From positions 1 through 53,041 of the forward strand of contig JAFYYA010000132.1 in the NCBI GenBank assembly GCA_017557785.1: a DNA stretch of 53,041 nucleotides, written 5' to 3'. A program made the translations under genes and the position numbers. Positions within the stretch are counted from its first letter, which is position 1. Each line of letters begins with the position of its first letter. Of this stretch, positions 22,253-41,409 are shown piece after piece. The notes below the pieces were generated by a model. That model ran no database searches, was not told where the DNA came from, and saw only the letters and a program-made list of their open reading frames with translations. The DNA comes from Salinivirgaceae bacterium. GTDB lineage: Bacteria > Bacteroidota > Bacteroidia > Bacteroidales > SZUA-534.

Positions 22253-22276
22253 TTTTTCTTTCTTGAATGATTTTGA

Positions 22277-22309
22277 ATTGTGGCGAGATTATTTTCGCCA
22301 CAATTTTTT
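22277..22309 (+). terminator. Intrinsic terminator after recA
   Basis: ATTGTGGCGA (22277-22286) pairs with TCGCCACAAT (22295-22304) around an 8-nt loop and is followed by a T-run. Confidence 0.9.
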
Positions 22310-22357
22310 ATTTTAAGTTTATGTTCAAGTTATTCCTTTTAAATTATTGATGTTTTT

Positions 22358-22660: not shown

Positions 22661-23329
22661 GACAAAATAGTTCAAGAATTGATTTGATGGCTGTTAATAA
22701 CGGTTTAATATCGAAATATTATATATAATACTCTAACTTGTAGATAAATTAAATTTATTACTTGAATAAATAGTTTAAACACTGGGGTTGATTTTCAATA
22801 CTTTAATATTATGTTAAACTGTTAATAAGATTTTTTGTTCAGTGTTTATAAAATCGAACGTTTTTTTCTTGCAAATAAATTTCAAGCGCTGCATATAAAA
22901 TTTTCTATTTATTCAAATGTTCATTTCGATTTTTTTATTGACTAAAATCAACACCACTCTTGCCTTTTCAACTGTTAACTTTGGTCATGATTTTAGTAAC
23001 TGATGAGTTTTAAACAATTTGTTTATAATGATGCGTACTTGACTGATTATTAAACCGTGCTCATTAATATCAATTGTTAAATAGCAACTCACTTTTTACT
23101 CTTTTTAAAAAATCAAAATTTTTCTGCGTTTTGTTTTGAACGATTTCACAGCCAAATCAACATCATCATCCTTTTTTTTAATCAATAAAAAATATATTTT
23201 ATATGATGTGTGGGGGGATGAGATTTTAAGATTTGGCGCAAAATTTTCAATTTGTTATGACTTTAAAAGTAATTGTTGTTTCTGTTTAATTAGTGCTTGC
23301 CTTTTCTTAATTTCGCAAAAAAATTTTTT
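22661..23329. other. AT-rich intergenic region upstream of nadA
   Basis: About 670 bp, strongly AT-rich, with many stops in all frames. I find no gene, tRNA or terminator. One short purine patch (GTGTGGGGGGATGAG, near 23208) stands out. The small open frame overlapping the nadA start has no coding character. The only functional signal I recognise is the nadA promoter at its right end. Confidence 0.55.
23285..23315 (+). promoter_or_regulatory. Candidate promoter of the nadA-mnmG operon
   Basis: TTTA (23285-23288), a 19-bp spacer and TAATTTCG (23308-23315, one mismatch to TAnnTTTG) lie just 14 bp before the nadA ATG. This would make a nearly leaderless transcript. Confidence 0.45.
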
Positions 23330-24304: not shown

Positions 24305-24305
24305 G

Positions 24306-25781: not shown

Positions 25782-26203
25782 AAATTATAAACAAATCGAA
25801 TAACGCACTGCCTGCTTATGAGACTGCAAGTTCGGCAGGAATGGATTTGCGTGCTTTTATTGATGCAGATGTTGTGCTTAAACCTTTCGAGCGTAAACTC
25901 ATTCCTACCGGTCTTTATATTGAGTTACCCGATGGCTACGAAGCACAGATTCGTCCCCGCAGCGGCCTGGCTATCAAAAGTGGAATTACAGTTCTTAATT
26001 CACCAGGAACCATCGATGCTGATTATCGTGGCGAGATCAAGGTTATTCTAATCAATCTTAGTAATCAAGATTTTACAATAAAGTCAGGCGAGCGCATTTG
26101 TCAAATGGTGATTGCCAAGCACGAAAAGGCAGAGTTTATTGAAGTTGAAGAGATTAGCGAAACAGAACGCGGTGCAGGCGGTTTCGGTCATACAGGAAAG
26201 TAG
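25772..26203 (+). CDS. dut: dUTP diphosphatase
   Basis: Dut hydrolyses dUTP to dUMP, keeping uracil out of DNA and supplying thymidylate synthesis. All five trimeric dUTPase motifs can be seen: AGMDLRA (motif 1), [12 protein letters not shown] (motif 2), [15 protein letters not shown] (motif 3), GERICQMVI (motif 4) and [11 protein letters not shown] (motif 5, where Ser is often found in place of His). Length 143 residues is standard. Its ATG lies within the flippase end, and its stop codon is directly followed by the ATG of the TPR gene. Confidence 0.96.
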
Positions 26204-27925
26204 ATGAAGATTTTATTAAGAGTCGGATTATTTTTTTGGGCTTTTTTCATTTGTATAAGTTCATATTGTCAGGAAGAAGAAAACGAATTGGAATCTATCT
26301 TCGGTGACGATATGACTTATACTTATAATCTGTTTGAAGCGGATAAGTATTTTAGCGAAGAGAACTATGAGTTGGCCGAAAGTTATTATCTGCTTTGCCT
26401 TAATCTGCAACCTGAAAATCCATTCCTATTCTATCGTTTAGCATCAATTTGTCTTCAAAGGAAAGACCTGACTGCTGCAGAGATTTATATTGATAAATGT
26501 TTGTCTTATAACAATACCAATGAATGGTACTTATATCTGGCAGGAAACATTTATGGGTATAGTGGTCAATTAGATAAGGCAGAGAATATTTTCCAAAAAC
26601 TTATTTCACTCAAACCGAACGAGTTCGATTTTTATGTATGCCTTGCCGACGTTTATATCAAAGGCAACAAATTAAAAAAGGCACTATCAACTTATGAGTT
26701 GATTGAAAAAAAGTTTGGTATCGATGAAGCAATAGTAATTCAGAAGAAGAACATTTATCTGCAACTCAAAAACAAAAAGAAGGCTGAAAACGAGTTAGTA
26801 AAACTCATCAATTACTATCCGGAAGAAGTACAGTTCCAGCGAATTCTTGCTGATTTCTATTATCAACTAGGAGATTTAGATAAAGCAATTTCGGCTTATA
26901 AGAAGATTTTGGCTGATAATCCGTCAGATGGTATTTCGCATATTGGACTTGCAGGTTGTTACCATTCCAAGTACGACATTGAAAATTTCTTCAATGAAAT
27001 TACAGCCGGCTTTTCATCAACGATGGTGAATCTTGAAATTAAAATTTCGATTTTGATTGATATCACTCACGATCAGAAACTGATAAACGAGAACTTCGAC
27101 AAAGTTTTCAATCTTTCAGAGTTACTTGTTAAGATTTATCCTGACGATCCTGATGCAAATACCATTTACGCCGATTTTCAAATGAATAAAGGCGATCTCT
27201 ACATTGCGCGCCTTGCTCTTCAGAAAGTTATTGAAACACGAAAAGACAAATATGCTATTTGGGAACATCTTTTGTTTATTGATAATCAGATGGCTGATTG
27301 GAATTCGTTGGTGAAACACAGTGCCGAAGCAATTGAGAATTTTCCAAATATTCCTTTGTTTTACTTTTTCAACGGAATCAGCAATTTTCAATTATCAAGA
27401 TACCCAGAAGCCAAAAAATCATTAGAATTTGGTTATAGTATTCTTCCGAAAAACGATCCGTTATTATCTGATTTTCTAACTTTTATAGGTGAAGTTTATT
27501 ATAAGTTGGATGATAAGGAAAAAGCATATTCCTATTTTGACAAACTTCTTGATACTGATCCAGGCAATTTGATGGTGATGAATAATTACAGTTATTATTT
27601 GTCGCTCGATAAAGCCAATCTTCAAAAGGCCCAGGAAATGTCTTTACAAACTATCCAGAAAGAGCCCGAGAACTCTACTTATCTTGACACCTATGCGTGG
27701 ATTTTATTTGAGATGAAACAATATTCCGAAGCATTGAAATACATAAAGAAGGCTGTTGATTTTGATTCAACGCGCAGTGGCGTCATTCTTGAACATTACG
27801 GCGATATTCTTTATTTCAACGACGATGCTGAAGGTGCCCTTGAACAATGGAAAAGAGTCAAAACAATAGGTAACGGAAGTGACAAACTCGATGAAAAAAT
27901 TGTGTCAGGGAAGTATATTGAGTAG
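26204..27925 (+). CDS. Exported tetratricopeptide-repeat protein
   Basis: A signal peptide (about 1-22, ending near SSYCQ) precedes about ten or more TPR helix pairs over 573 residues, e.g. ADKYFSEENYELAESYYLLCL, LDKAENIFQKLISLKPNEF, LDKAISAYKKILADNPSD and KEKAYSYFDKLLDTDPGNL (each in the 34-residue pattern). TPRs act as protein-binding scaffolds; this one should work in the periplasm or at the outer membrane. It overlaps the following lipoprotein gene by 35 bp, a sign of tight coupling, and homologues are found at this place in other Bacteroidetes. No enzyme domain is seen. Confidence 0.88.
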   Translation: MKILLRVGLFFWAFFICISSYCQEEENELESIFGDDMTYTYNLFEADKYFSEENYELAESYYLLCLNLQPENPFLFYRLASICLQRKDLTAAEIYIDKCLSYNNTNEWYLYLAGNIYGYSGQLDKAENIFQKLISLKPNEFDFYVCLADVYIKGNKLKKALSTYELIEKKFGIDEAIVIQKKNIYLQLKNKKKAENELVKLINYYPEEVQFQRILADFYYQLGDLDKAISAYKKILADNPSDGISHIGLAGCYHSKYDIENFFNEITAGFSSTMVNLEIKISILIDITHDQKLINENFDKVFNLSELLVKIYPDDPDANTIYADFQMNKGDLYIARLALQKVIETRKDKYAIWEHLLFIDNQMADWNSLVKHSAEAIENFPNIPLFYFFNGISNFQLSRYPEAKKSLEFGYSILPKNDPLLSDFLTFIGEVYYKLDDKEKAYSYFDKLLDTDPGNLMVMNNYSYYLSLDKANLQKAQEMSLQTIQKEPENSTYLDTYAWILFEMKQYSEALKYIKKAVDFDSTRSGVILEHYGDILYFNDDAEGALEQWKRVKTIGNGSDKLDEKIVSGKYIE

Positions 27926-28676
27926 TATTCTGTTGCTTTTCCTTTTTTGTTCGTGTTCAAAAACTCACATAGGCTCACGGCAAATAACTGATTTTTCGAG
28001 TCTTGAAGCAAAAGTTAAAAAACAACATGACATCAAGTTTTCCAATGTGCTGAAAATCAAATTTAAAACTATTGTTGAAACCGAAGACCGCGAAAACAAA
28101 CTGACGGGTAGGATTTTTTCTTTTTCTGATACTTGTCTATATGTGAGTGTTATGTCTTCGTCTTTAGGAATCGAAGTTGCTCAGGCGCTCATGAAAACAG
28201 ATTCAATTACTGTGATTAACAAGTATGAAAAAAACTATTTTTCAGGAACATATGCCGATTTTCGGAATGTTTTCGGTGCTGATTTCAAGGCCATTTATTC
28301 TTTTTTAACATCAACTTACCTTTCCGACACTATTTCTTTCAACAGTTCAAATACCAATTACCAGCCTAACTTCAATCGATTTATAGTGAACACCACTTTA
28401 TCTGAAAACTCAAATAAATCGTTTGTGACAACGATTTTTGACGGATATGGTAATCTTGCCAGCACTGAATATAAATCGTATAATGGCGATATTTTTAGGG
28501 CTATTTATTCTAATTTTGCGTTGAGTTATGGATTTCCTGCAGAATTGGTTTTAACATCAGTTGTGAAAGGAAAAAAGAACGAGATTAAAATTTTGTTTGA
28601 AAACGTAAGTGTGGTTAATGGAAGTCTTCCGGACTTGAATTTAAAGGTAGATAAATATAAACGCGTAAGTTTTTGA
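27891..28676 (+). CDS. DUF4292 family lipoprotein
   Basis: A lipoprotein signal MKKLCQGSILSSILLLFLFC leads to a lipobox ending SC (FCSC-SK, near residue 22). The remaining 240 residues match DUF4292 of Bacteroidetes: KFKTIVETEDRENKLTGRIFSFSDTC and SLGIEVAQALMKTDSITVINKYEKNYFSG style segments (shown here in part), with many beta-strands. The family may be related to LolA/LolB lipoprotein carriers, but this is my recollection and cannot be tested here. I start at ATG 27891; a GTG four codons upstream is possible. It is wedged between the TPR and the EnvC-like gene, both exported proteins. Confidence 0.82.
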   Translation: MKKLCQGSILSSILLLFLFCSCSKTHIGSRQITDFSSLEAKVKKQHDIKFSNVLKIKFKTIVETEDRENKLTGRIFSFSDTCLYVSVMSSSLGIEVAQALMKTDSITVINKYEKNYFSGTYADFRNVFGADFKAIYSFLTSTYLSDTISFNSSNTNYQPNFNRFIVNTTLSENSNKSFVTTIFDGYGNLASTEYKSYNGDIFRAIYSNFALSYGFPAELVLTSVVKGKKNEIKILFENVSVVNGSLPDLNLKVDKYKRVSF

Positions 28677-28678
28677 TA

Positions 28679-29887
28679 ATGTTTAGGTTGTTTCTTTCAT
28701 CGATTTTACTGATGGCATTTCTGCCGACGTTTTCTCAGTCGCGTTCCGACCTTGAAAAGCGAAAGAAGGAAAACGAGAAGGAAATAACTTATACCAATGA
28801 ACTTATTGCTAAGACAGAAAAAAACAAGACTGCATCCTATAACAAACTTTTGCTGATAAACAGCAAGATAAAAAGTCGTGAAAAAGTTATTGGTGATATT
28901 AATTCTGAAATATCATTAATCGATGGAAACATTAAAGTTCAGCAGGAATTAATTGATGAACTTAACAATGATTATGAGAAACTTAAAAGCGAGTATGCAC
29001 GTGTGATTTCGTTTTATTACAAAAATCGAAGCAATTATGACCGCATAATGTTCATCTTGGCTTCTGAAAGCGTAAATACTGCATTCAACCGCATTAAACA
29101 TCTTCAGCAGTACAGCGAATATCGTACTTCCCAGGCTCGTCAGATTGTTGAGACGAAAATTGAAATAGAAAAGCAACTTGCGCAACTTGATAGTATGAAG
29201 TCAGAGAAGAAACTGCTGCTTAGGGAACAAATGACCGAAACCAACGAGTTGAAAAAGGAAAAATCAGACCAAAACCAGATAATCCAAAAACTTGAAAAAG
29301 AAAAAGTTGAGTTAAAGAAAAAACTTGATAAGCAAATTAAACTCGCAAGTGAACTGCAGCATGCCATCGAAAAAGTGATTGCCGAAGAGTTGGCAAAAGC
29401 AAATTCGAAGAAAAAGGCACCTAATGTTTTTCAACTAACACCCGAAGAACAAAAACTTGCCAATACATTCGCAAGTAACAAGAAAAAGTTGCCATGGCCT
29501 ACAGAGCGTGGTGTAATTACAGGTTTTTTTGGCGAGAACCCGCACCCTGTATTGAAAGGTGTTTTTGTTAGAAATGACGGTATTGATATTTCAACTACCG
29601 AAGGTTCTTACATTCGTTCGATTTTTGATGGTACAGTAACCCGAGTTTTTGTAATTCCAGGCGCGCACACAACCGTCATTATACGTCACGGAAATTATCT
29701 TTCTGTATATTCAAATCTTTCAGAAGTGTTTGTTAAACAAGGCGATAAAGTTTCAACAAAACAGATGATTGGCAAAATTTATACTGACAAGGAAGAAGAA
29801 GGTAAATCTGTGCTTCAGTTCCAGATTTGGAAGGAAAATCAAAAACTCAATCCCCAAGAGTGGTTAGCAAGTTCAAAGAATGGATGA
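28679..29887 (+). CDS. EnvC-like coiled-coil protein with degenerate M23 (LytM) domain
   Basis: A signal peptide (1 to about 20, FLPTFSQ) is followed by a long coiled coil (about 22-255) and a C-terminal LytM/M23 domain (about 275-400). In active M23 peptidases zinc is bound by H, D and the second H of an HxH; here NPHPVLKG and NDGIDIS retain a His and Asp, but the HxH position reads VLQFQIWKE, so the enzyme is probably inactive. EnvC and NlpD show how such inactive LytM proteins activate amidases at the septum; a similar role is inferred. The ATG at 28679 follows the DUF4292 stop by 2 bp, and the end overlaps the next gene by 8 bp. Confidence 0.87.
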   Translation: MFRLFLSSILLMAFLPTFSQSRSDLEKRKKENEKEITYTNELIAKTEKNKTASYNKLLLINSKIKSREKVIGDINSEISLIDGNIKVQQELIDELNNDYEKLKSEYARVISFYYKNRSNYDRIMFILASESVNTAFNRIKHLQQYSEYRTSQARQIVETKIEIEKQLAQLDSMKSEKKLLLREQMTETNELKKEKSDQNQIIQKLEKEKVELKKKLDKQIKLASELQHAIEKVIAEELAKANSKKKAPNVFQLTPEEQKLANTFASNKKKLPWPTERGVITGFFGENPHPVLKGVFVRNDGIDISTTEGSYIRSIFDGTVTRVFVIPGAHTTVIIRHGNYLSVYSNLSEVFVKQGDKVSTKQMIGKIYTDKEEEGKSVLQFQIWKENQKLNPQEWLASSKNG

Positions 29888-32800
29888 TACTGTTGGATTG
29901 TTCAAACAGCGGCTCGACAAATTCATCGATAAACACTATAAAAGTTTGTTGATTAAAGGTTTATGTTCCTTTTTATCAATTACAGTAGCAACTCTTATTC
30001 TATTTTCATCTTTAGAACTTTTATTTGAACTCTCTTCATTTGCCAGGCTTTTTCTATTAGTTCTTTTCGTTCTATTAACGCTTTCAGCCTTCTTTTATTT
30101 TTTGTTGGTTCCTTCATTCCGTCTTTTTGGCATTTTGCCACGAATGTCTAATGCAGAAGCCTGCAAAATCATTCAAAGTAAAGATGTTGCATTAAAAGAC
30201 ATTCTTACAAACATAATCGAGTTGTCAAGTTTACCCAAGTCCGATTTGGTCGACGCCAGCATTGAACAAAAAATCAAATTGACCAACGAAATCAACTTTA
30301 CAACCTATGTTAGTTACCAGTCAAAGAAACATTTTGTCGTTTGTGCTCTGTCTTTGATTTCATTAATTATTTGTGTTTTATTTGCCCCAAATTTATTCAA
30401 AACGGGGTTTTTAAATATAGTCCATTTTCAAAGACAAACCACTGAAAATCAACAATTTTCTATATACATTGATGAGTCAAAACTTTCTGTTGAGCAAGGA
30501 AGTGACTTATTGATTGAAGCAACAGTAAAAGGAAAACTCGGCGCCGATGAGATGTTTGTAAAGTTTCACGGTAATCTGAATGTTATGCAAAAAGTCAACG
30601 ATTCGTTGTTCGCCTTTACATTCAAAAACGTCAACAATAGTTTTTCTTTCAGTTTGACGTATAGCAACAAAGAATCTAAAAACTACAATGTCAAAGTATT
30701 AAAAGTTCCGACAGTAAATGATTATTATACAGAAATTTACTATCCAAAATATACCAACATCAAAGACACAATTGTCAAAAACCAAAATATTTTAATTGTT
30801 CCACAAGGAACATTCTTAAAGCAAATATTTTCGGGTTTGAACATCGATACCTTAACCGTTCTTTCTTTAAAGGATTCTTCTTTCTTTACACTTCCGGGCG
30901 TGAACAATTACACTTTCGAAACCAAAGTTTTCTATAACGATAATTACAGGGTTGTTCTATCAAATACTGACATTAAACGAAACTTCATCGATTTTAAATT
31001 AGTTTCAATACCTGATGAGTATCCACAAATATCAGTTTCAAAAATCGAAGAACAAACAGGCGTCTCTTTCAATGGTTCAATTAAAGATGACTATGGCTTT
31101 ACAAAACTGCTGCTTTATGTTTCGTCTGAAGGTTCGAATGATACTCTTCAAATACCGATTTATAACAATATTACTTCGCAACAGATTTTTTACAACTATC
31201 AAACCAACATCAGTTCTGACATTTATGACAAGCCGGTTTCGTTTTGTTTTGAATTGTATGATAACGATGGTGTGAATGGCCCCAAGAAAGTCAGGTCTGA
31301 AATTCTCGACTATGTTGTCAAATCAATTTCAAACCAGACGGCAGACAAGGAAGAAAAGTATTCCGATTTGTTTACCAGACTTGAATTGACCAAGCAGTTA
31401 TCGGAAGAAATTGAATTTGAAATTGCAGAGTTGCGCCGAAAGTTGTTAAATGACAATCTCACTGAGTGGGAAAAGAAAAGTATGCTGCAACAAATCAATA
31501 ATAAGACAAATCAGTTGCAGGATTTGTTGAACAATATTTCTAAAGACCACAAATCACTTGAAAATTCTTTTAATAACAGCCAGCAAATTATTGAAAAACA
31601 AAATATTATTTCTGAATTGCTTAATAGTTTGATTGACGATGAACTTAAACAGATCTTGAAAGAAATAAGTGAATTGGCAGCCGAAAAACAACAGAACTAC
31701 AATGCTTTATCTGAAGACTTAAAAAAGGATTTCGGCAATTTTGAGAAAGAAGTTGATAAGAATATTGAGTTATTGAAGAAGATTAAAATCGAAGAAAACA
31801 TCTCACAACTTGCTGATAATTTGAATGTTTTGTCCGAAAAACAGAATCAAATATCAAATCAATCCGGCGCCGATTCTGTCAAAAGCGAGTTGAACAAGCA
31901 AAAAGAGTTTTTCAATGATTTGAAAGACATGTATCAGAAACTGACAGAAGACAATAAATCGCTTGAGCGCCCTTATAAAATCAATAACTTTGATAATGAA
32001 TTTAACCAAATTGACAGCAATTTCGATATTGAAAACCAACAACTTGATGACAACAACACACAAGATTTTGAAAAATCAGCAAAGGATAACTCTAACCAGA
32101 TTAAGCAACTTTCCGAGAATTTGAAGCAGATGTTTGAATCGAGCAAAGCCGAGTCCGACGCCGAAGATGCCGATGATTTACGTCAGATTTTGGACAATTT
32201 GTTCGAAGTATCTTTTGCTCAAGAACATATAATTACAGAATACGAGAGAGTAACTTTCAACAATCCGCTTTATCAAGAGAGAATTTTGGCTCAATCGCAG
32301 CTTGTCGAAAATTTCAAAGTGGTGCGCGACAGTTTGTATAATTTGTCTCGGCGCACGGTTTATCTCGGCAATCATATTTCGAAAGCGGCGTATCTAATCG
32401 AAGATGGCATGATGGAATCGTGTGTTCAACTTCAGGAACGCAACACTTCCAAAGCAAACCGAAGCCAGCACGAAGCTTTGAAAAATGCTAACGATCTGAT
32501 ACTTATCCTTTCCGAATCGTTGAAGAATATTGAGAACAGTTCGTCAGGTGCCGGTGGAAAAACATCGAAGAAACGCAAACAGAAACCAAAGCAACAGCTA
32601 GATAGTCAGCAACTTTCAGAGATGCGCAGCGCACAAGAATCAATGAAAAACCAGCTGCGCGATTTGCTCAACCAGATGAAGTCGGGTGAGTCGGCCGAAA
32701 CCAACAAAGAATTGGCAAAAATGCTGATGCAAAACGAAATATATCAACAAATGCTCGAACAGATGATGCGTAATGCTGATATTGACGGCCAAACGGCCAA

Positions 32801-33131
32801 ACTTTTGCAGGAAGCAAAAAAACTTATGGAAAAAACACACTCAGAATTTGCCAATAAAAAGCTGTCAATTCAGACCGTTATGCGTCAGCAAAACATTGTA
32901 ACTAAGCTACTTGAAGCAGAGAATGCCGAAGCTGAACGTGACACTGACAACAACCGCGAATCGACAACTGCAAAAAATATTGATGGAAAAACACCTAAAA
33001 ATTGGCAAGAAGACATTACATTTGAAAAAAATATGGATGTTTTAAAACAGACAAACTTGAAACTGAATTCGTTTTATAAAGCGAAATATGAAGAGTACCT
33101 TAACAGCGTAAACAATGGAAACAATGAATAA
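29880..33131 (+). CDS. Large DUF4175-like coiled-coil membrane protein
   Basis: A 1083-residue protein with three N-terminal membrane helices (about 23-46, 55-80 and 149-172), an extracytoplasmic beta-rich part (about 180-480), and a very long Gln/Asn/Glu/Lys-rich coiled coil (about 495-1000; e.g. QQINNKTNQLQDLLNNISKD). The N-terminus and layout fit the DUF4175 family; homologues in Bacteroidetes lie in the same place before the small ATPase, ybeY and mnmG. No enzymatic motif is visible. The length, membrane anchor and coiled coil suggest a structural or tethering role in the envelope, perhaps with the EnvC-like protein encoded just upstream. It is markedly AT-rich. Confidence 0.8.
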   Translation: MDDTVGLFKQRLDKFIDKHYKSLLIKGLCSFLSITVATLILFSSLELLFELSSFARLFLLVLFVLLTLSAFFYFLLVPSFRLFGILPRMSNAEACKIIQSKDVALKDILTNIIELSSLPKSDLVDASIEQKIKLTNEINFTTYVSYQSKKHFVVCALSLISLIICVLFAPNLFKTGFLNIVHFQRQTTENQQFSIYIDESKLSVEQGSDLLIEATVKGKLGADEMFVKFHGNLNVMQKVNDSLFAFTFKNVNNSFSFSLTYSNKESKNYNVKVLKVPTVNDYYTEIYYPKYTNIKDTIVKNQNILIVPQGTFLKQIFSGLNIDTLTVLSLKDSSFFTLPGVNNYTFETKVFYNDNYRVVLSNTDIKRNFIDFKLVSIPDEYPQISVSKIEEQTGVSFNGSIKDDYGFTKLLLYVSSEGSNDTLQIPIYNNITSQQIFYNYQTNISSDIYDKPVSFCFELYDNDGVNGPKKVRSEILDYVVKSISNQTADKEEKYSDLFTRLELTKQLSEEIEFEIAELRRKLLNDNLTEWEKKSMLQQINNKTNQLQDLLNNISKDHKSLENSFNNSQQIIEKQNIISELLNSLIDDELKQILKEISELAAEKQQNYNALSEDLKKDFGNFEKEVDKNIELLKKIKIEENISQLADNLNVLSEKQNQISNQSGADSVKSELNKQKEFFNDLKDMYQKLTEDNKSLERPYKINNFDNEFNQIDSNFDIENQQLDDNNTQDFEKSAKDNSNQIKQLSENLKQMFESSKAESDAEDADDLRQILDNLFEVSFAQEHIITEYERVTFNNPLYQERILAQSQLVENFKVVRDSLYNLSRRTVYLGNHISKAAYLIEDGMMESCVQLQERNTSKANRSQHEALKNANDLILILSESLKNIENSSSGAGGKTSKKRKQKPKQQLDSQQLSEMRSAQESMKNQLRDLLNQMKSGESAETNKELAKMLMQNEIYQQMLEQMMRNADIDGQTAKLLQEAKKLMEKTHSEFANKKLSIQTVMRQQNIVTKLLEAENAEAERDTDNNRESTTAKNIDGKTPKNWQEDITFEKNMDVLKQTNLKLNSFYKAKYEEYLNSVNNGNNE

Positions 33132-33519
33132 GGAATTGGTTATTAAGTCGAAACTTGAGAATATGTCGCTCGTAGAGAACTTCATCGATGAAGTTTCTGT
33201 TTGTTTGTCCATTGTTTCCGATTTGTATGGCAACTTGCTGATATCCACAATCGAAGCTGTTACAAACGCCATTGTTCACGGAAACGAGAGCAACCCCGAC
33301 AAACTTGTACGCATCAATGTTGAAGGCAAGGAACACTCAATAAATGTAACAGTTGCTGACGAAGGAAAGGGATTCAATGTGAATGTTATTCCCGATCCTA
33401 CCAAGCCCGATTATATTGAAAAACCTAACGGACGCGGTATTTTCCTGATGAAAAACCTTGCCGACAAAGTCAAATTTGATAAAAACGGTTCAGTTGTAAC
33501 TCTAACATTCAATATCTAA
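33115..33519 (+). CDS. RsbW/SpoIIAB-like ATP-binding protein
   Basis: A 134-residue GHKL ATPase domain alone, as in anti-sigma factor kinases. The N box is EAVTNAIVHGN (47-57) with Glu47 and Asn51, the G1 box DEGKGF (82-87) and the G2 box GRGIFLM (106-112). Anti-sigma kinases of this form bind a sigma factor or phosphorylate an antagonist; no partner gene with a STAS domain is in the window, so its target is unknown. The first ATG is used here; a second ATG three codons on is equally good. It overlaps the DUF4175 gene by 17 bp. Confidence 0.87.
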   Translation: METMNKELVIKSKLENMSLVENFIDEVSVCLSIVSDLYGNLLISTIEAVTNAIVHGNESNPDKLVRINVEGKEHSINVTVADEGKGFNVNVIPDPTKPDYIEKPNGRGIFLMKNLADKVKFDKNGSVVTLTFNI

Positions 33520-33520
33520 A

Positions 33521-33934
33521 GTGATTAATTTCTTTTTTGAAGACATCGACGAGTTCGATATCAAAAAAACTGACATTGAAAAGAATATTGAGAAACTCGT
33601 AATCAACGAGAATCGGATTTTAGGCGATGTGAACTACATCTTGTGTTCCGATAACTATCTGCTCAATATTAACCGTGAATATCTCAACCACGATTATTTC
33701 ACCGATGTGATTTCGTTCGATTATTGCGAGGATAATGTCATTTCGGGCGATATTTTTATAAGCGTCGACACTGTTTCAGATAATGCCAAAGAATACGGCG
33801 CAACTTTCGAGAACGAGCTTGAACGTGTAATGATACACGGAGTTTTGCATTTTGTTGGTTATAACGACAAAACCGAAAGCGACCAGAAAACAATGCGCGC
33901 CAAAGAAAACCAGTATCTTTCTTTATTCAAATAA
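33521..33934 (+). CDS. ybeY: Endoribonuclease YbeY (16S rRNA maturation)
   Basis: YbeY is a zinc RNase needed for 16S rRNA 3' maturation and ribosome quality control. The zinc motif is HGVLHFVGYND: His106, His110 and, at the third ligand position, Asp116 in place of the usual His. From memory Asp here recurs in Bacteroidetes, so it is probably functional. Further support is DVISFDY, SGDIFISVD and the 137-residue length. The start is GTG (33521), 1 bp after the stop of the ATPase gene; it gives the expected INFFFED N-terminus. mnmG follows after 3 bp. Confidence 0.93.
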   Translation: MINFFFEDIDEFDIKKTDIEKNIEKLVINENRILGDVNYILCSDNYLLNINREYLNHDYFTDVISFDYCEDNVISGDIFISVDTVSDNAKEYGATFENELERVMIHGVLHFVGYNDKTESDQKTMRAKENQYLSLFK

Positions 33935-33937
33935 GCA

Positions 33938-35800
33938 ATGCTTCCTGAATACGATGTTATTGTGGTCGGAGGCGGTCACGCCGGATGTGAGGCCGCAGCT
34001 GCTGCAGCTAATATGGGTTCGCAAACCCTTTTGATAACCATGGACATGACCAAATTTGGTTGCATGTCGTGCAATCCTGCCATTGGTGGAATAGCAAAAG
34101 GGCAGATTGTAAAAGAAATTGACGCTCTCGGCGGATATACCGGAATTGTTACCGATAAGTCGGCCATTCAATATAGAATGTTGAATCGTTCAAAAGGCCC
34201 TGCCATGTGGAGCCCGCGTGCTCAGTGCGACCGTGCTCTTTTCACTTTGGCTTGGCGCGAAATGCTCGAAAACACCCCGAATCTCGATTTGTTTCAGGAC
34301 TCTGTTGTTGCCTTGGAGACAAGTGCGGGCAGAGTAAACGGTGTTGTAACACAGATAGGATTTCATTTCAAATCGAAGACCGTTGTTCTAACCAATGGCA
34401 CATTCTTGAATGGTTTGATGCATGTCGGATTAACACAATTTGTGGGTGGACGCTATTCGGAGTTGCCGTCAGTGGGGTTGACAGAGAATCTTGCGAAGTT
34501 GGGATTCGAGACCGGCCGCATGAAAACCGGCACCCCGGCACGTATCGACGGCCGCACAATAGATTTCAGCAAATGTGAGATTCAAAACGGCGACGCTGAC
34601 CCGTATTTCTTCAGTTATTCGACCGAAAAACCGTATCACGACCATCAAATTCCTTGCTATATAACGCGCACAAATACAGCTGTACACGATGAGTTACGTA
34701 AAGGATTTGACGAATCGCCAATTTTCAATCATACCATAGTTGGTGTTGGGCCGCGTTATTGTCCGAGCATCGAGAGCAAACTAGTTACTTTCAGCGATAA
34801 GGATTCACACCAGCTTTTCCTTGAGCCGGAGGGGTTCAATACTCACGAATATTACATCAACGGATTCTCATCATCGCTGCCGTGGAAGGTGCAGTATAAT
34901 GCCATTCACCTGATACCGGGACTTGAAAATGCAAAGATATATCGACCGGGATATGCTATTGAATATGACTATTTCCAGCCGACGCAGCTTAAAGAAACTC
35001 TTGAAACAAAAATCGTGGGTGGATTGTTCTTTGCCGGACAGATAAACGGAACAACAGGCTATGAAGAAGCAGCCGCCCAAGGATTGATGGCCGGCATCAA
35101 TGCACATCTGCAAAGTGCAGGCGCCGCGCCGTTCGTGCTCAAGCGCAATGAGGCTTACATTGGTGTCTTAATCGACGACCTTATCTGCAAAGGTGTTGAC
35201 GAGCCATACCGCATGTTCACCAGCCGTGCCGAATATCGCATGTTGCTTCGCCAGGATAATGCCGACGAGCGTCTGACCGAAAAATCGTACAATATAGGCT
35301 TGGCACGCCGCGAACAACTCGATCGTTACAGGGCCAAACGCGCCGCCATCGACTCTTTGGTTGAGTTCCTTTCAACAACCAACATTCGCGCGGAGCAAGC
35401 CAACAAGTTCCTTGCGGAACATGGCAGCTCTGAAATAACCGAAAGTGTCAAATATTCACAAATACTTTCCCGCCCCAGCATTCAGCTCAACGACATGATA
35501 GAAGAGATTGAAAAACTGTCGCAATATAAAGAGACCAGCCGCGAGGTTGTTGAAGGAGCGGAGTTCAAAATCAAATATTCGGGTTACATTGAGCGCGAGA
35601 AGAACAACGCCGACAAACTCAAAAAACTTGAGAACCTGCGCATACCCGACGGTTTTGACTATTCAAAGCTACAGTCCATCACCACAGAGGCCCGCAGCAA
35701 ACTTGCCAAGCACCAGCCGGCAACCATCGGACAGGCGGCACGCATTCCGGGCGTCAGCCCCAACGACATCAACGTCCTTTTGGTCTATTTCGGACGGTAA
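33938..35800 (+). CDS. mnmG: tRNA uridine-5-carboxymethylaminomethyl modification enzyme, FAD subunit
   Basis: MnmG (GidA) with MnmE adds the cmnm5 group to the wobble uridine of several tRNAs. The FAD-binding motif is [10 protein letters not shown] (11-20); [28 protein letters not shown] and [18 protein letters not shown] near the C-terminus are diagnostic. At 620 residues it is full length. It closes the packed nadA-mnmG run. The stop codon TAA is followed without a gap by a perfect parS site. mnmG (gidA) is often close to the replication origin in bacteria. Confidence 0.98.
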
Positions 35801-35816
35801 TGTTCCACGTGAAACA
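35801..35816. other. parS: parS site (ParB-binding centromere sequence)
   Basis: TGTTCCACGTGAAACA fits the known bacterial parS consensus TGTTNCACGTGAAACA at every position. It extends to a 20-bp near-palindrome (35799-35818). ParB loads on such sites near oriC to organise and segregate the chromosome. It abuts the mnmG stop codon. I found no second exact copy in this window. Confidence 0.9.
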
Positions 35817-35900
35817 TTTATTTTAGATAATTGTGCATATTTTATTGATATACAAACACATATACCCGCAATTCAATAAACAAATCTGTGTTGTGGAACC

Positions 35901-35924
35901 GTAGGGACGCGATTCATCGCGTCC
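35901..35924 (+). repeat. Type A palindromic repeat copy
   Basis: Begins GTAGGGACGC; GGACGCGAT (35905-35913) pairs perfectly with ATCGCGTCC (35916-35924) around a 2-nt loop. Confidence 0.8.
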
Positions 35925-35975
35925 GCAAAACATTTTAGGAACACAACACCATACATCCGAAAAAAATGAATTATT

Positions 35976-36004
35976 GTAGAGACGTCATATTATGGCGTCT
36001 CTAC
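35976..36004 (+). repeat. Type B palindromic repeat copy
   Basis: GTAGAGACG (35976-35984) and CGTCTCTAC (35996-36004) pair perfectly around a CATATTATG-like loop. Confidence 0.8.
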
Positions 36005-36204
36005 AGAAAAACACCCATAAACCATTGAAAATCACATTGTAGAGACGATGTACACATCGTCTCTACGTTTCATCTGCACCGCATAAATTATTACCCAACG
36101 CCATCCATACAATTATTTTTCTATTTTTACCCCAACTAACCATTATCCAATTCTAACAAAACGAGTATAAAACTTTAAAAATTAAATAAATGAAACGCAT
36201 TTTG
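35996..36204 (+). repeat. Duplicated upstream block, copy 1
   Basis: From CGTCTCTAC through the type B palindrome and the leader to ATGAAACGCATTTT, this block aligns almost base for base with 49989-50198, with small differences. The two are direct repeats about 14.0 kb apart, each in front of a BspA-like gene. Confidence 0.85.
36039..36066 (+). repeat. Type B palindromic repeat copy, perfect
   Basis: GTAGAGACGATG (36039-36050) and CATCGTCTCTAC (36055-36066) are perfect 12-bp arms with a 4-nt loop. Confidence 0.85.
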
Positions 36205-38130
36205 TCTTTTATTGTAGCCGTAACGTTTGCCGGGCAGGCGTGGGCAGTAGATAATTATGATTTTTCTGCTGTATGTAGTAGCGGACAAACGCTTTATTAC
36301 AAAATAAAAAGTGAGACGGAAGTTGAAGTAACATATCCCAAAAAATCAGGTGCCGATTATTATTCGGGCTACACAAAGCCTTCAGGCAACATGGTTATTC
36401 CAGATGCAGTTACAAATCCAGAATCAAAAGGCACAACTTATACGGTTACAAGCATCGGCGGCTCTGCGTTCGAGTCTTGCATCGGCCTGACAGAAGTAGT
36501 CATTCCCTATTCAGTAACAAGCATTGGTCCCCAAGCAATCCGTGATTGCAGCGGTCTGACATCAGTAATCATCGGCAATTCGGTTAAAAGCATTGGTAGC
36601 CAAGCGTTCTTTAGGTGCAGCAATCTGATATCCGCCACCATTCCAAATTCTGTAACAAGCATTGACAACTCGGCGTTCGCCGAATGCAGCGGCCTGACAT
36701 CCGTCACCATCGGCAATTCAGTTACAAGCATCGGCGACTATGCATTCCAGAATTGTAGCGGTTTAACGTCAGTTACCATCTCCAACTCCGTCACATACAT
36801 TGGCAACTATGCGTTCAGCGGTTGCATCGACCTGACATCCGTCACCATTCCAAATTCGGTTACAATGGTTCGCCCTGGTGCGTTCTATGAGTGTAGCGGC
36901 TTAACATCCGTCACCATTCCAAATTCGGTTACAAGCATTAGTTTGTATGCGTTCTATGGTTGCATCGGCCTGACATCCGTCACCATTCCCAATTCGGTAA
37001 CAAGCATCGACTACTCTGCGTTCTTTGGTTGCAGTGGCCTTACATCCATTTGTTACGAAGGTAGTAATGAGCCAACATATCAATCCACATCATTTAAAAA
37101 TGTTGATAAAACAATTCCAGTGTGTGTGCCGATTGATTATAGTTTAGATACTTGGTGCGGTTTTACAAATTTGTACAAAGGTCATGATATTGTAACTGAT
37201 CCTGCAACTGTTACTTGCACAGAGGCGGGGTTGTCAGAAGGCAAGCATTGCTCGAAGTGCGGAAAAGTAATAACGGCACAAGCTGTTGTTTCGGCTTTAG
37301 GCCACAGTTACGGCGTGCCAACATATGAATGGACTGAAGATGGCAGCGCTTGCACTGCAACATCAATTTGCCAGCGTGACGAAACCCACGTTGCAACTGA
37401 AGACGCCACAATTACAAGCGAAGAAACTATTGCTGCCACTTGTGGGGAAATGGGAACCACTACATACACGGCAACGTTTGAAAACGAGCCGTTCACAACG
37501 CAGACAAAAGATGTTGTGGATATTCCTGCCACCGGCCATAGCTACAGCACTACCGTTACCGCCCCAACCTGCACGGCAGTTGGTTACACAACGCACACCT
37601 GCTCGGTATGCGAGAACACGTATTATTCAGATACCGTTGCAGCCAAAGGCCATACAGCGGTTGTTGATGCCGCCGTGCCTGCCACCTGCACAGCCGCCGG
37701 CAAAACCGAAGGCAAGCACTGCTCGGTTTGCAACGAGACAATTGTAGCACAAACAGAAATAGCCGCTTTAGGTCACGAGTTTAAAGACTACGTCTATAAC
37801 AACGATGCCACCACCGCCGCCGATGGCACTGAAACTGCCATCTGCACCCGCGGCTGCGGCGCAACGGACACAAAAGTGGCCGAAGGCACAAAACTGCCTG
37901 AAAAAGTCACTGCAGTTTCGGACGAAGCCGCCAACGCAGTGAGCATCTACGCCCACAACAACATCATTGTAGTTGAAAACGCCACAGACGAAATCAGTGT
38001 TTACAATGCCATGGGCAAATTGGTGTGCAAGGACGTAACACCTTGCGTCCGTATTGAAATCCCCGTCACCGCCCCAGGCGTTTATATTGTAAAAACCGGC
38101 AGCGTGGTTAAACGGGTGATGGTGAATTAA
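36190..38130 (+). CDS. BspA-like leucine-rich-repeat surface protein 1 with T9SS-type sorting domain
   Basis: A signal peptide (1-19, AWA) leads to an N-terminal domain (about 20-80), about nine LRR_5/BspA repeats of 23 residues (about 82-290; pattern AFxxCSGLTSVTIPNSVTSIG), and a Cys-rich region (about 335-560). That region contains three modules C-x9-11-C-x2-C-x13-14-H, e.g. C343/C354/C357/H372. The C-terminal 65 residues (ISVYNAMGKLVCKD, APGVYIVKTGSVVKRVMVN) resemble the type A T9SS sorting signal. BspA proteins bind host proteins or other cells; here that is inference. The second BspA-like gene starts 40 bp downstream. Residues about 614-621 are encoded by a copy of the palindromic repeat. 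Confidence 0.88.
   Translation: MKRILSFIVAVTFAGQAWAVDNYDFSAVCSSGQTLYYKIKSETEVEVTYPKKSGADYYSGYTKPSGNMVIPDAVTNPESKGTTYTVTSIGGSAFESCIGLTEVVIPYSVTSIGPQAIRDCSGLTSVIIGNSVKSIGSQAFFRCSNLISATIPNSVTSIDNSAFAECSGLTSVTIGNSVTSIGDYAFQNCSGLTSVTISNSVTYIGNYAFSGCIDLTSVTIPNSVTMVRPGAFYECSGLTSVTIPNSVTSISLYAFYGCIGLTSVTIPNSVTSIDYSAFFGCSGLTSICYEGSNEPTYQSTSFKNVDKTIPVCVPIDYSLDTWCGFTNLYKGHDIVTDPATVTCTEAGLSEGKHCSKCGKVITAQAVVSALGHSYGVPTYEWTEDGSACTATSICQRDETHVATEDATITSEETIAATCGEMGTTTYTATFENEPFTTQTKDVVDIPATGHSYSTTVTAPTCTAVGYTTHTCSVCENTYYSDTVAAKGHTAVVDAAVPATCTAAGKTEGKHCSVCNETIVAQTEIAALGHEFKDYVYNNDATTAADGTETAICTRGCGATDTKVAEGTKLPEKVTAVSDEAANAVSIYAHNNIIVVENATDEISVYNAMGKLVCKDVTPCVRIEIPVTAPGVYIVKTGSVVKRVMVN
38031..38050 (+). repeat. 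Type A palindrome inside BspA-like gene 1
   Basis: GGACGTAA-CACC-TTGCGTCC forms an 8-bp stem with one G-T type mismatch. It lies in frame in the sorting-domain coding sequence and gives the residues KDVTPCV. Confidence 0.7.
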
Positions 38131-38170: not shown

Positions 38171-40984
38171 ATGAAACGCATTTTCACATTTTTATTTGCC
38201 GTGATGGCTGTTGGGCAGGTGTTTGGGCAGACAACATTTGAAATTGGTAATTTAAAGTACACCGTAACCGATGAAACAAACCATTATGTTTCGGTTGGCA
38301 AAGGTTCAACTGAACCTAGGGGAGTTCTCAGTATTCAAGAAAAAGTAACCAACCCTAACGATGGTGTAGAATACACGGTTACGAGCATCGCTAGCAAGGC
38401 CTTCTTCGTTTGTTTCGGACTTACATCAGTCACCATTCCCAATTCAGTAACAAGCATCGGCAGTAATGCCTTCAACGCTTGCGGCTTAACATCAGTTACC
38501 ATTCCCGAATCAGTAACAAGTATCGGCATATATGCGTTCGCTGAAAGTAGCCTTACATCAGTTACCATTCCCAATTCAGTTACAAGCATTGGTGAATGCG
38601 CATTCGCTTATACCTGTAGCTTGGAATCTGTTACCATTCCTAAATCAGTTGAAAGCATCGGCAGTGAAGTGTTTCGTAGTAGCACCCTTGCAACTATTTA
38701 TTGTGAATATGAGGAAACATCAAAACCATCAGGGTGGAAAGAAAATTGGAACAACGACGGAACAGTAAAATGGGGTTGCAAGGTGATAAGAGCAATAGCT
38801 AATAATACCGAGTATGGAAACATCACCACGGATGGTGAAAACTATGCCGTTAAAGGTGATGATGGGTCACTATGGTATTTGGCGGAAACAACAAATGGCA
38901 AGGCAACATTAACCGCTACCGCCAAAAAAGGAAATAATTTTATAAAATGGGAAGATAATGCAGGAGTTGGAAGCATACGCACCATAGATGTTACGAAAAG
39001 TGAAACTTTCATAGCTGAGTTCAGACCAAAGCCAGCATCATTTGTTATTGATGGTCTTAAATACTACACCAACACATACAACAATAATGTGACAGTCAAA
39101 GCGAACTCTACTGATTTAAGTGGAAATATTGAAATACACGATGAGGTTACTTATGATAATGTTGAATATACTGTTACAAGCATCGGCAACTCTGCGTTCA
39201 GAGAGTGCAGTGGTCTTACATCCATCACCATTCCAAGTTCAGTTACAAGCATTGACAGCCATGCGTTCACTGGATGTAGTGGTCTGACAACAGTCACCAT
39301 CCCCGAATCGGTTACAAGCATTGGCAGCTATGCGTTCAGTAGATGTAGAAGCCTGACAACAGTCATCATCCCCGAATCGGTTACAAGCATCGACGACTGT
39401 GCGTTTTCGGGTTGCAGCAGCTTGACAACAGTAACCATTCCAAATTCGGTTGAAACCATCGGCTGCCGTGCGTTCAGAGAATGCAGTGGTCTGACAACAG
39501 TCACCATTGGCAATTCGGTTAAAACCATCGGCAGCGAAGCGTTCTATGGTTGCAGCAAACTGTCATCAGTCACCATCGGTAATTCGGTTGAAACCATCGG
39601 CAGCGAATCGTTCTATGGTTGCAGCAAACTGTCATCAGTTGCCATGGGGAATTCAGTTACAAGCATCGGCAGCCATGCGTTCAGATATTGCAGTGGTCTG
39701 ACAACAGTCACCATTGGTAATTCGGTTGAAACCATCGGTTACGGTGCGTTCATTGGATGCAGCGGTCTGACAACAGTCACCATCCCCAATTCTGTTACAA
39801 GCATCGGCGGCTCTGCGTTCTCTGGATGCAATGGTCTGACAACAGTCACCATCCCCGAATCGGTTACAAGCATTGGCAGCTATGCGTTCGATAGATGCAG
39901 CGGCCTTACAACCGTCACCATCGGCAATTCTGTAACAAGCATAGACATGTTTGCGTTCTATAATTGCAGTAGCCTGACATCTATTTGTTACGAAGGCAGT
40001 AGCGAACCGACATATCAATCCAATTCATTTAACAATGTTGACAATACAATACCAGTGTGCGTGTCGGCGGATTATTCTTCTGAAACTTGGTGCGGCTTTA
40101 CAAACTTAATTAAAGGACACAATAAAGTAACAGACAATGCAATTGCGGCAACTTGCACAGAGACAGGCTTAACCGAAGGCTCGCATTGCTCATACTGCGG
40201 AAAAGTTTTTGTTGCACAAGAGGTTATACCTACATTAGACCACACCTACGGCATCGCCATCACCGCCCCAACCTGCACCGCAGTTGGTTACAAAACCCAC
40301 ACTTGCTCAGTTTGCGAGTACACATATAATTCAGACACTGTTGATGCTAAAGGCCACAAAGCCGATAGTGTTGAATTTGAGAATATAGTACATGCCACCT
40401 GCACTGTTGCCGGTTCAAAAGATTCAGTGGTATTCTGCTCGGTTTGCCAAGTAGAGTTGAGCCGCGAAGAGCGTGCCATTCTTGTCCTTGGCCATACAGA
40501 AGTCACAGATGCCGCCGTGCCTGCCACCTGCACAGCCGCAGGCAAAACCGAAGGCAAGCACTGCTCAGTATGCAACGAGACAATAGTGAAACAAACAGAA
40601 ATACCCGCTTTAGGCCACGAGTTTAAAGATTACGTCTATAACAACGATGCCACCACCACCGCCGATGGCACCGAAACAGCCACTTGCACCCGCGGCTGCG
40701 GCGCAACCGACACCCGCCCAGCAGCAGGCACCAAAATTGCCGAGACACCCGAAAAGGGCACGGCTGTTGCCGAATCAGCGGCAAACGCCGTAACCATCTA
40801 CGCCCACCACAACATCATTGTGGTTGAAAACGCCACATACGAAATCAGCGTTTATGACGCAATGGGCAAATTAATCTGTAGGGACGCAACACCTTGCGTC
40901 CGCACGGAAATAAATGTAAATGCCCCCGGCATCTACATTGTCAAGGTTGGCGGCACGGCAAAACGCGTGATGGTGAACGATTGA
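38171..40984 (+). CDS. BspA-like leucine-rich-repeat surface protein 2 with T9SS-type sorting domain
   Basis: A 937-residue relative of the upstream gene. A signal peptide (1-19, GQVFGQ) is followed by a first LRR_5 block (about 68-165), a domain like the divergent InlB B-repeat (about 215-290; TATAKKGNNFIKWEDN), a second, longer LRR_5 block of about 13 repeats (about 325-620), Cys-rich CCCH modules (about 655-850) and a C-terminal T9SS-type domain (ISVYDAMGKLICRD, APGIYIVKVGGTAKRVMVND). The LRRs are 69-bp units that are very alike in DNA. The last 300 bp are nearly identical to the matching part of gene 1, which suggests recent duplication or gene conversion. It is probably co-transcribed with gene 1. 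Confidence 0.88.
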   Translation: MKRIFTFLFAVMAVGQVFGQTTFEIGNLKYTVTDETNHYVSVGKGSTEPRGVLSIQEKVTNPNDGVEYTVTSIASKAFFVCFGLTSVTIPNSVTSIGSNAFNACGLTSVTIPESVTSIGIYAFAESSLTSVTIPNSVTSIGECAFAYTCSLESVTIPKSVESIGSEVFRSSTLATIYCEYEETSKPSGWKENWNNDGTVKWGCKVIRAIANNTEYGNITTDGENYAVKGDDGSLWYLAETTNGKATLTATAKKGNNFIKWEDNAGVGSIRTIDVTKSETFIAEFRPKPASFVIDGLKYYTNTYNNNVTVKANSTDLSGNIEIHDEVTYDNVEYTVTSIGNSAFRECSGLTSITIPSSVTSIDSHAFTGCSGLTTVTIPESVTSIGSYAFSRCRSLTTVIIPESVTSIDDCAFSGCSSLTTVTIPNSVETIGCRAFRECSGLTTVTIGNSVKTIGSEAFYGCSKLSSVTIGNSVETIGSESFYGCSKLSSVAMGNSVTSIGSHAFRYCSGLTTVTIGNSVETIGYGAFIGCSGLTTVTIPNSVTSIGGSAFSGCNGLTTVTIPESVTSIGSYAFDRCSGLTTVTIGNSVTSIDMFAFYNCSSLTSICYEGSSEPTYQSNSFNNVDNTIPVCVSADYSSETWCGFTNLIKGHNKVTDNAIAATCTETGLTEGSHCSYCGKVFVAQEVIPTLDHTYGIAITAPTCTAVGYKTHTCSVCEYTYNSDTVDAKGHKADSVEFENIVHATCTVAGSKDSVVFCSVCQVELSREERAILVLGHTEVTDAAVPATCTAAGKTEGKHCSVCNETIVKQTEIPALGHEFKDYVYNNDATTTADGTETATCTRGCGATDTRPAAGTKIAETPEKGTAVAESAANAVTIYAHHNIIVVENATYEISVYDAMGKLICRDATPCVRTEINVNAPGIYIVKVGGTAKRVMVND
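39169..39997 (+). repeat. Tandem 69-bp LRR-coding repeats in BspA-like gene 2
   Basis: About a dozen units recur at 69-bp spacing, each with the words GCGTTC, TGCAGTGGTCTG, ACAACAGTCACCAT and TTCGGTTA with few changes. This is a strong substrate for slippage or recombination. Confidence 0.85.
40878..40901 (+). repeat. Type A palindrome inside BspA-like gene 2
   Basis: It begins GTAGGGACGC; GGACGCAA-CACC-TTGCGTCC is a perfect 8-bp stem. It is in frame and yields residues CRDATPCVR of the sorting domain. It differs from the intergenic copy at 49895 by only two positions in the loop. Confidence 0.8.
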
Positions 40985-41009
40985 TTTAAATGGATTGATA
41001 ATGTGTTTT

Positions 41010-41037
41010 GTAGAGACGGTGCACGCACCGTCTCTAC
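41010..41037 (+). repeat. Type B palindromic repeat copy, perfect
   Basis: GTAGAGACGGTGC (41010-41022) and GCACCGTCTCTAC (41025-41037) are perfect 13-bp arms with a 2-nt loop, 26 bp after the stop of BspA-like gene 2. It could act as a Rho-independent-like stop, although no T-run follows. Confidence 0.85.
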
Positions 41038-41409
41038 GTGTTTTGTGGCGTAAAAAATTGGCAATCAAATGCGGTTGTCATATTATGGCAGCCCTACCGT
41101 GTTTAAATAGGATTCGATTTGGATTCGTTTGGTTAGAAACAAAAATCCGCTTGCGGATTAATTCTGTTCGAATCGGCCAGAATCGGTTAGTTTCCCGGCA
41201 ACCGTCAGGTTGGCCCTTTCCGTGTTTTTCGTGTGTTCTGTGGTTAGAAGAACAAACAACCGTCAGATTGTGTCAAATTTTGCATTTTTTGTGGTCATTT
41301 CCGCTGTGAAAATCAGTATCCCGTGCCTATCGGTGCTGTGTCGTCTGTGCGAATAAATTCCGTTACCAGCGTTCGAATAATAACCATCATTTTCGTTCAC
41401 AAATTCACC

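What the first reader, a model, noticed from the sequence alone, without database searches (positions are those of the whole stretch)
35801..35816. Exact parS centromere site abutting the mnmG stop codon
TGTTCCACGTGAAACA fits the bacterial ParB-binding consensus at all positions. It lies immediately after the mnmG stop, and mnmG is often near oriC. It suggests that this window is in the origin-proximal part of the chromosome and that this organism uses ParABS. Having the site in an untranslated spot between a long housekeeping operon and repeat-rich surface-protein genes is notable.
Basis: partly seen in the sequence, partly recalled or inferred. Interest (0 to 1): 0.75.

Follow-up and report, generated by a model that had tools for sequence, protein, structure and literature searches.

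The report
Chromosome centromere site beside mnmG
The 16-base palindrome is very probably a ParB-binding centromere (parS) site, and in most relatives examined across the phylum Bacteroidota the same site sits beside, or inside, the tRNA-modification gene mnmG, not far from where replication starts.

Summary
Confirmed. TGTTCCACGTGAAACA lies at 35801-35816, immediately after the mnmG stop codon, and is the only match at up to 1 mismatch in its 3.0-Mb, 153-contig genome. ParA and a parS-type ParB are encoded on another contig.

The placement is conserved. In 39 of 60 order-level genomes (own included) there is an exact site, and all 39 have one within 300 bp of mnmG. Of 80 mnmG loci across Bacteroidota, 68 have a site with at most 1 mismatch within 300 bp or inside the gene. 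In a phylum draw, 28 of 29 fetched loci hold mnmG beside the site. The side varies between orders.

In six relatives the origin-type GC-skew switch falls about 7-137 kb away. parB is unlinked: 18-47% of the chromosome away in six, roughly 11-17% in three more. Canonical Smc was found in 0 of 60 genomes.

The site is an ordinary ParABS element; its phylum-wide pinning to mnmG is the notable part, not found described in ten searches. ParB binding is untested.

The parts
35801..35816 (+). parS site TGTTCCACGTGAAACA
   Evidence: the only site at up to 1 mismatch in the genome; conserved beside mnmG
35799..35818 (.). 20-bp near-palindrome AATGTTCCAC/GTGAAACATT that extends the parS core by 2 bp on each side (overlaps the last 2 bases of the mnmG stop codon)
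   Evidence: arms 35799-35808 and 35809-35818, 90% complementary; weak A-rich left and T-rich right flanks in 59 3'-side sites of relatives
33938..35800 (+). mnmG (gidA), tRNA uridine-5-carboxymethylaminomethyl(34) synthesis enzyme, the gene to which the site is pinned
   Evidence: TIGR00136 838.7 bits, cut-off 524.85
33521..33934 (+). ybeY, 3 bp upstream of mnmG; its tight packing leaves no room for a 5' site here
   Evidence: TIGR00043 108.5 bits; matched on the same strand upstream of mnmG in 58 of 80 loci, close to it in most of them but 0.5-3.7 kb away in seven

Best explanation
35801-35816 is the chromosomal centromere (parS) of a ParABS system in an unnamed Bacteroidota (Bacteroidales-like) genome. 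A trans-acting ParB, encoded with ParA elsewhere on the chromosome, recognises the 16-mer, loads there as a CTP-dependent sliding clamp and spreads over mnmG and its neighbours. ParA then pulls this origin-proximal nucleoprotein complex apart after replication. In this phylum the centromere is usually a zone of one to a few parS copies centred on mnmG. Copies are gained and lost on the 3' side, the 5' side or inside the gene, but the zone stays with mnmG. Shown here: the site, its uniqueness, its conservation at mnmG, the presence of ParA and ParB, the recognition residues, the origin-proximal position in six relatives, and the unlinked parB. Inferred from the known family: ParB binding, clamp loading and segregation. 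Inferred from comparison: gain and loss of copies.
For: Exact site, single in the genome. ParA-ParB gene pair. ParB aligns to solved ParB/Spo0J chains (E down to 3.4e-49) and keeps the G-K-x-R and M-G-H positions that correspond to R173 and G201 of Caulobacter ParB, said to be absolutely conserved in ParB and changed in Noc (PMC7383237, passages; the residue mapping is mine by eye). 51 of 54 exact sites in 39 genomes lie within 300 bp of mnmG. 5 of 5 assemblies in which mnmG was not found also lack any site at up to 1 mismatch, against 2 of 55 with mnmG (Fisher p 3.8e-6). 101 exact sites in 733 kb around 80 mnmG loci against 0 for the reversed pattern. 28 of 29 fetched phylum-draw loci hold mnmG beside the site. 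The origin-type skew switch lies 7-57 kb from the site in five of six chromosomes or large contigs and 57-137 kb in the sixth. Hi-C work on 12 gut strains, including two Bacteroidetes, found ParABS homologues and parS clusters at the inferred origin (PMC10197239, section 19 read).
Against: No binding data. The own genome is too fragmented to place its origin, and the window's own skew is uninformative. In three of the four contigs with a bootstrap, the 5-95% interval of the skew switch excludes the site itself (by about 5, 10 and 6 kb), and the fourth, Chryseobacterium, is weak (R2 0.15, 11 of 500 permutations as good): near the origin, probably not at it. parB was not found in 5 of 60 genomes, three of which (G030, G051, G052) carry an exact site at mnmG. 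G020 has parB and mnmG but no site at up to 2 mismatches in the 3 kb read around mnmG and none at up to 1 mismatch genome-wide. 7 of 80 mnmG loci have no site with up to 2 mismatches near the gene, including both Saprospirales-type loci. 16 of 60 phylum-draw genomes have no exact site (not followed at 1 mismatch). PMC10197239 chose as origin the skew shift nearer the parS cluster (methods passage), so it is not independent support for origin proximity.
Confidence: 0.93

Rival explanations
1. The site is a real parS but its place is passive inheritance: in the ancestor mnmG lay in an origin cluster with rsmG, parA, parB and parS. parAB and rsmG moved out, and parS stayed because it is too close to a housekeeping gene to be separated easily. 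mnmG itself plays no part. (This differs from the best explanation only in why the site stays at mnmG.)
For: The mnmG-rsmG-parA-parB neighbourhood at origins of other phyla is recalled, not tested here. Very short gaps (median 10 bp among 3' sites within 300 bp) would make loss of linkage rare.
Against: Sites change sides and number between orders and turn up inside the mnmG reading frame (codons near 126, 491, 521-531). This suggests repeated gain and loss within a zone rather than one frozen inherited site.
Confidence: 0.5
2. The palindrome is mainly an intrinsic transcription terminator or RNA hairpin of mnmG.
For: It follows the stop codon, is palindromic, and 3'-side sites are followed by more T (0.39) than precedes them (0.24).
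Against: The window RNA folds no better than shuffles (z +1.2), and no terminator-like site is called there. Base identity, not just pairing, is conserved. The same 16-mer occurs upstream of mnmG and inside its reading frame.
Confidence: 0.03
3. It is a regulatory site by which ParB (or another factor) controls mnmG or neighbouring genes, not a centromere.
For: It abuts a housekeeping gene; a review discusses transcriptional roles of ParB in some species (PMC7022226, passages).
Against: Position relative to the mnmG promoter is not conserved (3', 5', both, internal). Sites lie near the skew switch, and in the own genome it is the only site at up to 1 mismatch.
Confidence: 0.04

Closest known systems
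Chromosomal ParABS / parS (Bacillus Spo0J-Soj, Caulobacter, Pseudomonas)
   Same: Same 16-bp palindrome, origin-proximal in the relatives tested, ParA and ParB present, ParB recognition residues of the parS type.
   Different: parB is 18-47% of the chromosome away from parS in six complete or nearly complete chromosomes and roughly 11-17% in three more, whereas a review calls co-location of par operon and parS in the origin domain the conserved feature (PMC7022226, passages). Sites are pinned to mnmG. Canonical Smc was found in 0 of 60 genomes.
parS of Bacteroides caecimuris and Muribaculum intestinale (PMC10197239; passages, section 19)
   Same: Same phylum; ParABS homologues and parS near the inferred origin; no known condensin found.
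   Different: The passages and section I saw do not name mnmG or the distance to parAB.
Noc / NBS nucleoid occlusion
   Same: Related protein fold and a related 16-bp palindrome.
   Different: The own ParB scores below the NCBIfam Noc cut-off (229 against 315 bits) and keeps the R and G positions that Noc changes.

Membership tests
chromosomal ParABS centromere (parS) | 16-bp TGTTNCACGTGRAACA palindrome | tested here: met
   0 mismatches
chromosomal ParABS centromere (parS) | parB in the same genome | tested here: met
   TIGR00180 over cut-off; found in 55 of 60 order-level genomes, own included
chromosomal ParABS centromere (parS) | parA next to parB | tested here: met
   own genome only: an ORF of 267 aa with a KGGVGKT motif ends 2 bp before parB in L037; ParA-superfamily models match below their equivalog cut-offs
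chromosomal ParABS centromere (parS) | ParB has parS-type recognition residues (R173 and G201 in Caulobacter numbering) | tested here: met
   alignment with the residue roles from PMC7383237 passages; mapping by eye; positions 172 and 204, also called conserved there, are Q and K here
chromosomal ParABS centromere (parS) | origin-proximal position | tested here: met
   6 of 6 relatives sampled; own genome not placeable
chromosomal ParABS centromere (parS) | par operon in the origin domain near parS | tested here: not met
   parB 18.1-47.1% of the chromosome away in 6 relatives, roughly 11-17% in 3 more; never on the mnmG contig in 50 order-level relatives with both. In Dokdonia a second, weaker ParB-family hit (E 2.8e-37) lies on the parS contig about 680 kb away. 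A usual companion feature rather than a strict definition of parS
chromosomal ParABS centromere (parS) | ParB binds the site, spreads, and the complex segregates first | not testable with these tools
   needs ChIP-seq, CTP-clamp assay and imaging
ParB-Smc loading system | canonical Smc present | tested here: not met
   TIGR02168: 0 of 60 at E 1e-10, found in 11 of 14 control genomes (10 over the cut-off); only 9 candidates per genome were scored; ScpAB and MksB not searched

The most novel reading that the evidence does not exclude
The mnmG locus is the ancestral, still-selected centromere of the whole phylum Bacteroidota: a zone of roughly 2-3 kb in which parS copies are continually lost and regained (3', 5', or in frame inside mnmG as a V-P/S-R-G/E-T peptide). 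It is served by a par operon that is unlinked to it and works without canonical Smc-ScpAB, so ParB-parS in this phylum either loads an unidentified condensin or needs none. mnmG plus parS would then be a better origin landmark than dnaA in these bacteria.
Probability: 0.45. Interest if true: 0.7.

Novelty: new variant of a known kind. Interest (0 to 1): 0.5.

Why it matters
Origins are hard to place in Bacteroidota: dnaA was on a different contig from mnmG in 14 of 14 genomes where the mnmG contig is known, and others warn against dnaA as an origin marker (PMC10197239). mnmG plus parS gives a sequence-level landmark that can be read even in fragmented metagenome assemblies. It also raises two directly testable questions: why a centromere stays with one tRNA-modification gene across a phylum, and what ParB-parS does where canonical Smc is not found.

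Tried and rejected
Transcription terminator: the RNA fold is no better than shuffles (z +1.2) and no terminator is called at the site. Chance match: reversed-pattern controls (see the observation check for where the controls are not silent). oriC inside the window: no exact TTATCCACA box (expected 0.37), and window skew is uninformative; neither excludes a divergent origin. A link to the BspA-type surface-protein genes: rejected, because the DNA after the site differs among congeners while the site stays with mnmG (sequences, read by eye). Noc-type protein: rejected on the cut-off and residues. Papers: ten searches gave no listing that by title or abstract start describes parS pinned to mnmG in Bacteroidota; I opened only PMC10197239, PMC7022226, PMC7383237 and PMC7333895, in passages (and one section of the first). 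The library is open-licence only, and the key survey (Livny et al. 2007) is not held, so prior description cannot be excluded. Not tested: whether other phyla also pin parS to mnmG, ScpA/ScpB or MksB in these genomes, rsmG position. Corrections to my notebook: entry 2 says dnaA is off the mnmG contig in all 15 genomes, but G064's mnmG contig number was never established; and it says parB is never on the mnmG contig, but G060 has a second, weaker ParB-family hit there.

Full report
Observation. The 16-mer TGTTCCACGTGAAACA is at 35801-35816, directly after the TAA stop of a 620-aa mnmG ORF, 33938-35800 (family assignment). It has 0 mismatches to TGTTNCACGTGAAACA on the + strand and 1 on the - strand. 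In the whole genome (3,015,898 bases, 153 contigs, 94% complete, 7% contamination) it is the only site at up to 1 mismatch. A 20-bp near-palindrome, 35799-35818, surrounds it.

Machinery. The own genome has one ParB-family gene (TIGR00180, E 5.1e-53) on contig C146. A ParA-type ATPase gene ends 2 bp before it, and an unassigned 193-aa ORF and a murein-transglycosylase-D-like protein (below that model's cut-off) follow. The ParB matches solved ParB/Spo0J chains (best E 3.4e-49) and keeps the arginine after G-K-x and the glycine of M-G-H in its helix-turn-helix region. These correspond, by my eye alignment, to R173 and G201 of Caulobacter ParB, which PMC7383237 reports as contacting parS and conserved in all extant ParB orthologues (passages seen). 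Positions 172 and 204, also named there as conserved, are Q and K here.

Conservation in the order. Of 60 genomes (own plus 59 relatives), 39 have an exact site and 53 a site at up to 1 mismatch. The reversed-pattern control gives 0 exact hits in all 60 but does hit in 21 of 60 at 1 mismatch. The 39 genomes hold 54 exact sites; 51 lie within 300 bp of an end of mnmG, and all 39 genomes have at least one such site. The three others are 448 bp 3' of mnmG (G052), 11.2 kb 5' (G047) and on another contig (G032). The median gap to the stop codon, among 3' sites within 300 bp, is 10 bp, and in 12 cases it is 0. Sixteen genomes have mnmG but no exact site. In one of them, G036, the contig ends in mnmG, and its only 1-mismatch site is on another contig. 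Of the other 15, 14 carry a 1- or 2-mismatch site at mnmG: 12 on the 3' side, one only on the 5' side (G057), and one (G027) at the end of a partial mnmG match, probably inside the gene. G020 has none in the 3 kb read around mnmG. In G001, G006, G010, G026, G048 and G053 the site overlaps a TAG stop codon. The five genomes in which mnmG was not found at E 1e-50 (G005, G016, G018, G028, G033) also lack any site at up to 1 mismatch (Fisher p 3.8e-6). Against this, parB was not found in G006, G028, G030, G051 and G052, and G030, G051 and G052 have an exact site.

Conservation in the phylum. In 733 kb they hold 101 exact, 43 one-mismatch and 27 two-mismatch sites, against 0, 0 and 1 for the reversed pattern. 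68 of 80 loci have a site with at most 1 mismatch within 300 bp of mnmG or inside it; 5 more have a 2-mismatch site; 7 have none near. One of those seven has an exact site 3.6 kb away and one has only 131 bp of downstream sequence. Bacteroidales sites are mainly 3', Flavobacteriales loci mostly have both sides, and 9 of 12 loci labelled Cytophagales, Chitinophagales or Saprospirales have 5' sites, one of them with 2 mismatches. In an even draw of 60 genomes from the phylum (own included), 44 have an exact site and the reversed control has none. Loci were returned for 29 of the 43 others; 28 hold mnmG within 0.8 kb of the site, and the last, a 2-kb piece at a contig end, does not. Six sites lie inside mnmG, all read in the same frame as V-P/S-R-G/E-T, four of them near codons 521-531. 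Three of those five loci (L119, L144, L151) have no site within 300 bp outside the gene.

Origin. GC skew was sampled in 20-kb stretches. The negative-to-positive switch, the origin type, lies 56 kb (G034), 55 kb (Dokdonia), 23 kb (Christiangramia) and 7 kb (Chryseobacterium, weak: R2 0.15) from the site on large contigs. The bootstrap intervals exclude the site itself in the first three. In two complete or nearly complete chromosomes the switch lies 17-57 kb away (G122) and 57-137 kb away by fit (G073, where the raw sign changes at the site). So the site is near the origin, probably not at it. dnaA was on a different contig from mnmG in 14 of 14 genomes where the mnmG contig is known; G064 could not be placed. 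For the own genome origin proximity cannot be shown, and the window's own skew is uninformative.

Unlinked par operon and missing Smc. parB was never on the mnmG contig in the 50 order-level relatives with both, nor in the own genome. Among six further named relatives (G060-G063, G065, G066) the best parB is always on another contig; Dokdonia (G060) has a second, weaker ParB-family hit about 680 kb from its sites on the same contig. In six chromosomes of known length (five single-contig, one of two contigs) parB lies 18.1, 25.5, 25.7, 32.3, 34.3 and 47.1% of the chromosome away from parS. Three more genomes, whose exact length I do not have, are closer: about 0.5 Mb, or roughly 11% (G095) and 15-17% (G069, G074), by hand; I did not check mnmG there. 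[quoted passage not shown] Canonical Smc (TIGR02168) was found in 0 of 60 genomes and in 11 of 14 controls. Only 9 candidates per genome were scored, so a divergent condensin is not excluded. PMC10197239 also reports no known condensin in two Bacteroidetes (passages).

Mechanism. The best reading is a ParABS centromere: ParB, made elsewhere, loads at this 16-mer, spreads, and is moved by ParA soon after the origin region replicates. The anatomy is shown; binding, clamp loading and movement are inferred from the family. One site can suffice for segregation in Pseudomonas, by the title of PMC4368675 (search listing only). Why the centromere stays at mnmG is open. Passive inheritance from an ancestral origin cluster (recalled, untested) and active retention of an mnmG-centred zone remain; the changes of side and the in-gene sites favour the second.

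Verdict. The site itself is an ordinary member of a known system. Its phylum-wide pinning to mnmG, with an unlinked par operon and no detected Smc, is a variant I did not find described in ten searches of an open-licence library; the main 2007 survey was not available to me.

Noticed in passing
window 35905-35924, 35975-36005, 36039-36066; copies at 41008-41044 and 50029-50065: Short perfect or near-perfect palindromes (GTAGAGACG...CGTCTCTAC and GGACGCGAT..ATCGCGTCC) follow the parS and recur near the surface-protein genes. The one at 36038-36067 is also called terminator-like.
   Followed up: partly
window 36190-38130, 38171-40984 and about 50400-52800: BspA-type leucine-rich-repeat proteins (Pfam LRR_5 for the first two) with a 69-bp DNA repeat period that recurs at about 50.4-52.2 kb.
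   Followed up: partly
window 29880-33131: 1083-aa ORF upstream of ybeY-mnmG with no Pfam or NCBIfam match at E 0.001.
   Followed up: no
window 22001-34000: A+T-rich block (GC 0.33-0.39) in a window otherwise mostly 0.44-0.54 GC (one other bin, 50001-52000, is 0.39).
   Followed up: no
L144, L149, L119, L151, L112: parS sites inside the mnmG reading frame, all read as V-P/S-R-G/E-T, four of six near codons 521-531.
   Followed up: partly
L101 and L125, upstream of mnmG: Arrays of 12 (Flavobacterium sp. MC2016-06) and 9 (Terrimonas ferruginea) parS-like sites (up to 2 mismatches) within about 1.2 kb upstream of mnmG.
   Followed up: no
G011:C246 and G011:C159: Two mnmG copies in one assembly, each followed by its own pair of exact parS sites; may be contamination (4%) or a duplication.
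   Followed up: no
G066:C19:344903-355423: In Aquirufa parB lies about 9 kb from dnaA, while parS is on another contig with mnmG.
   Followed up: no
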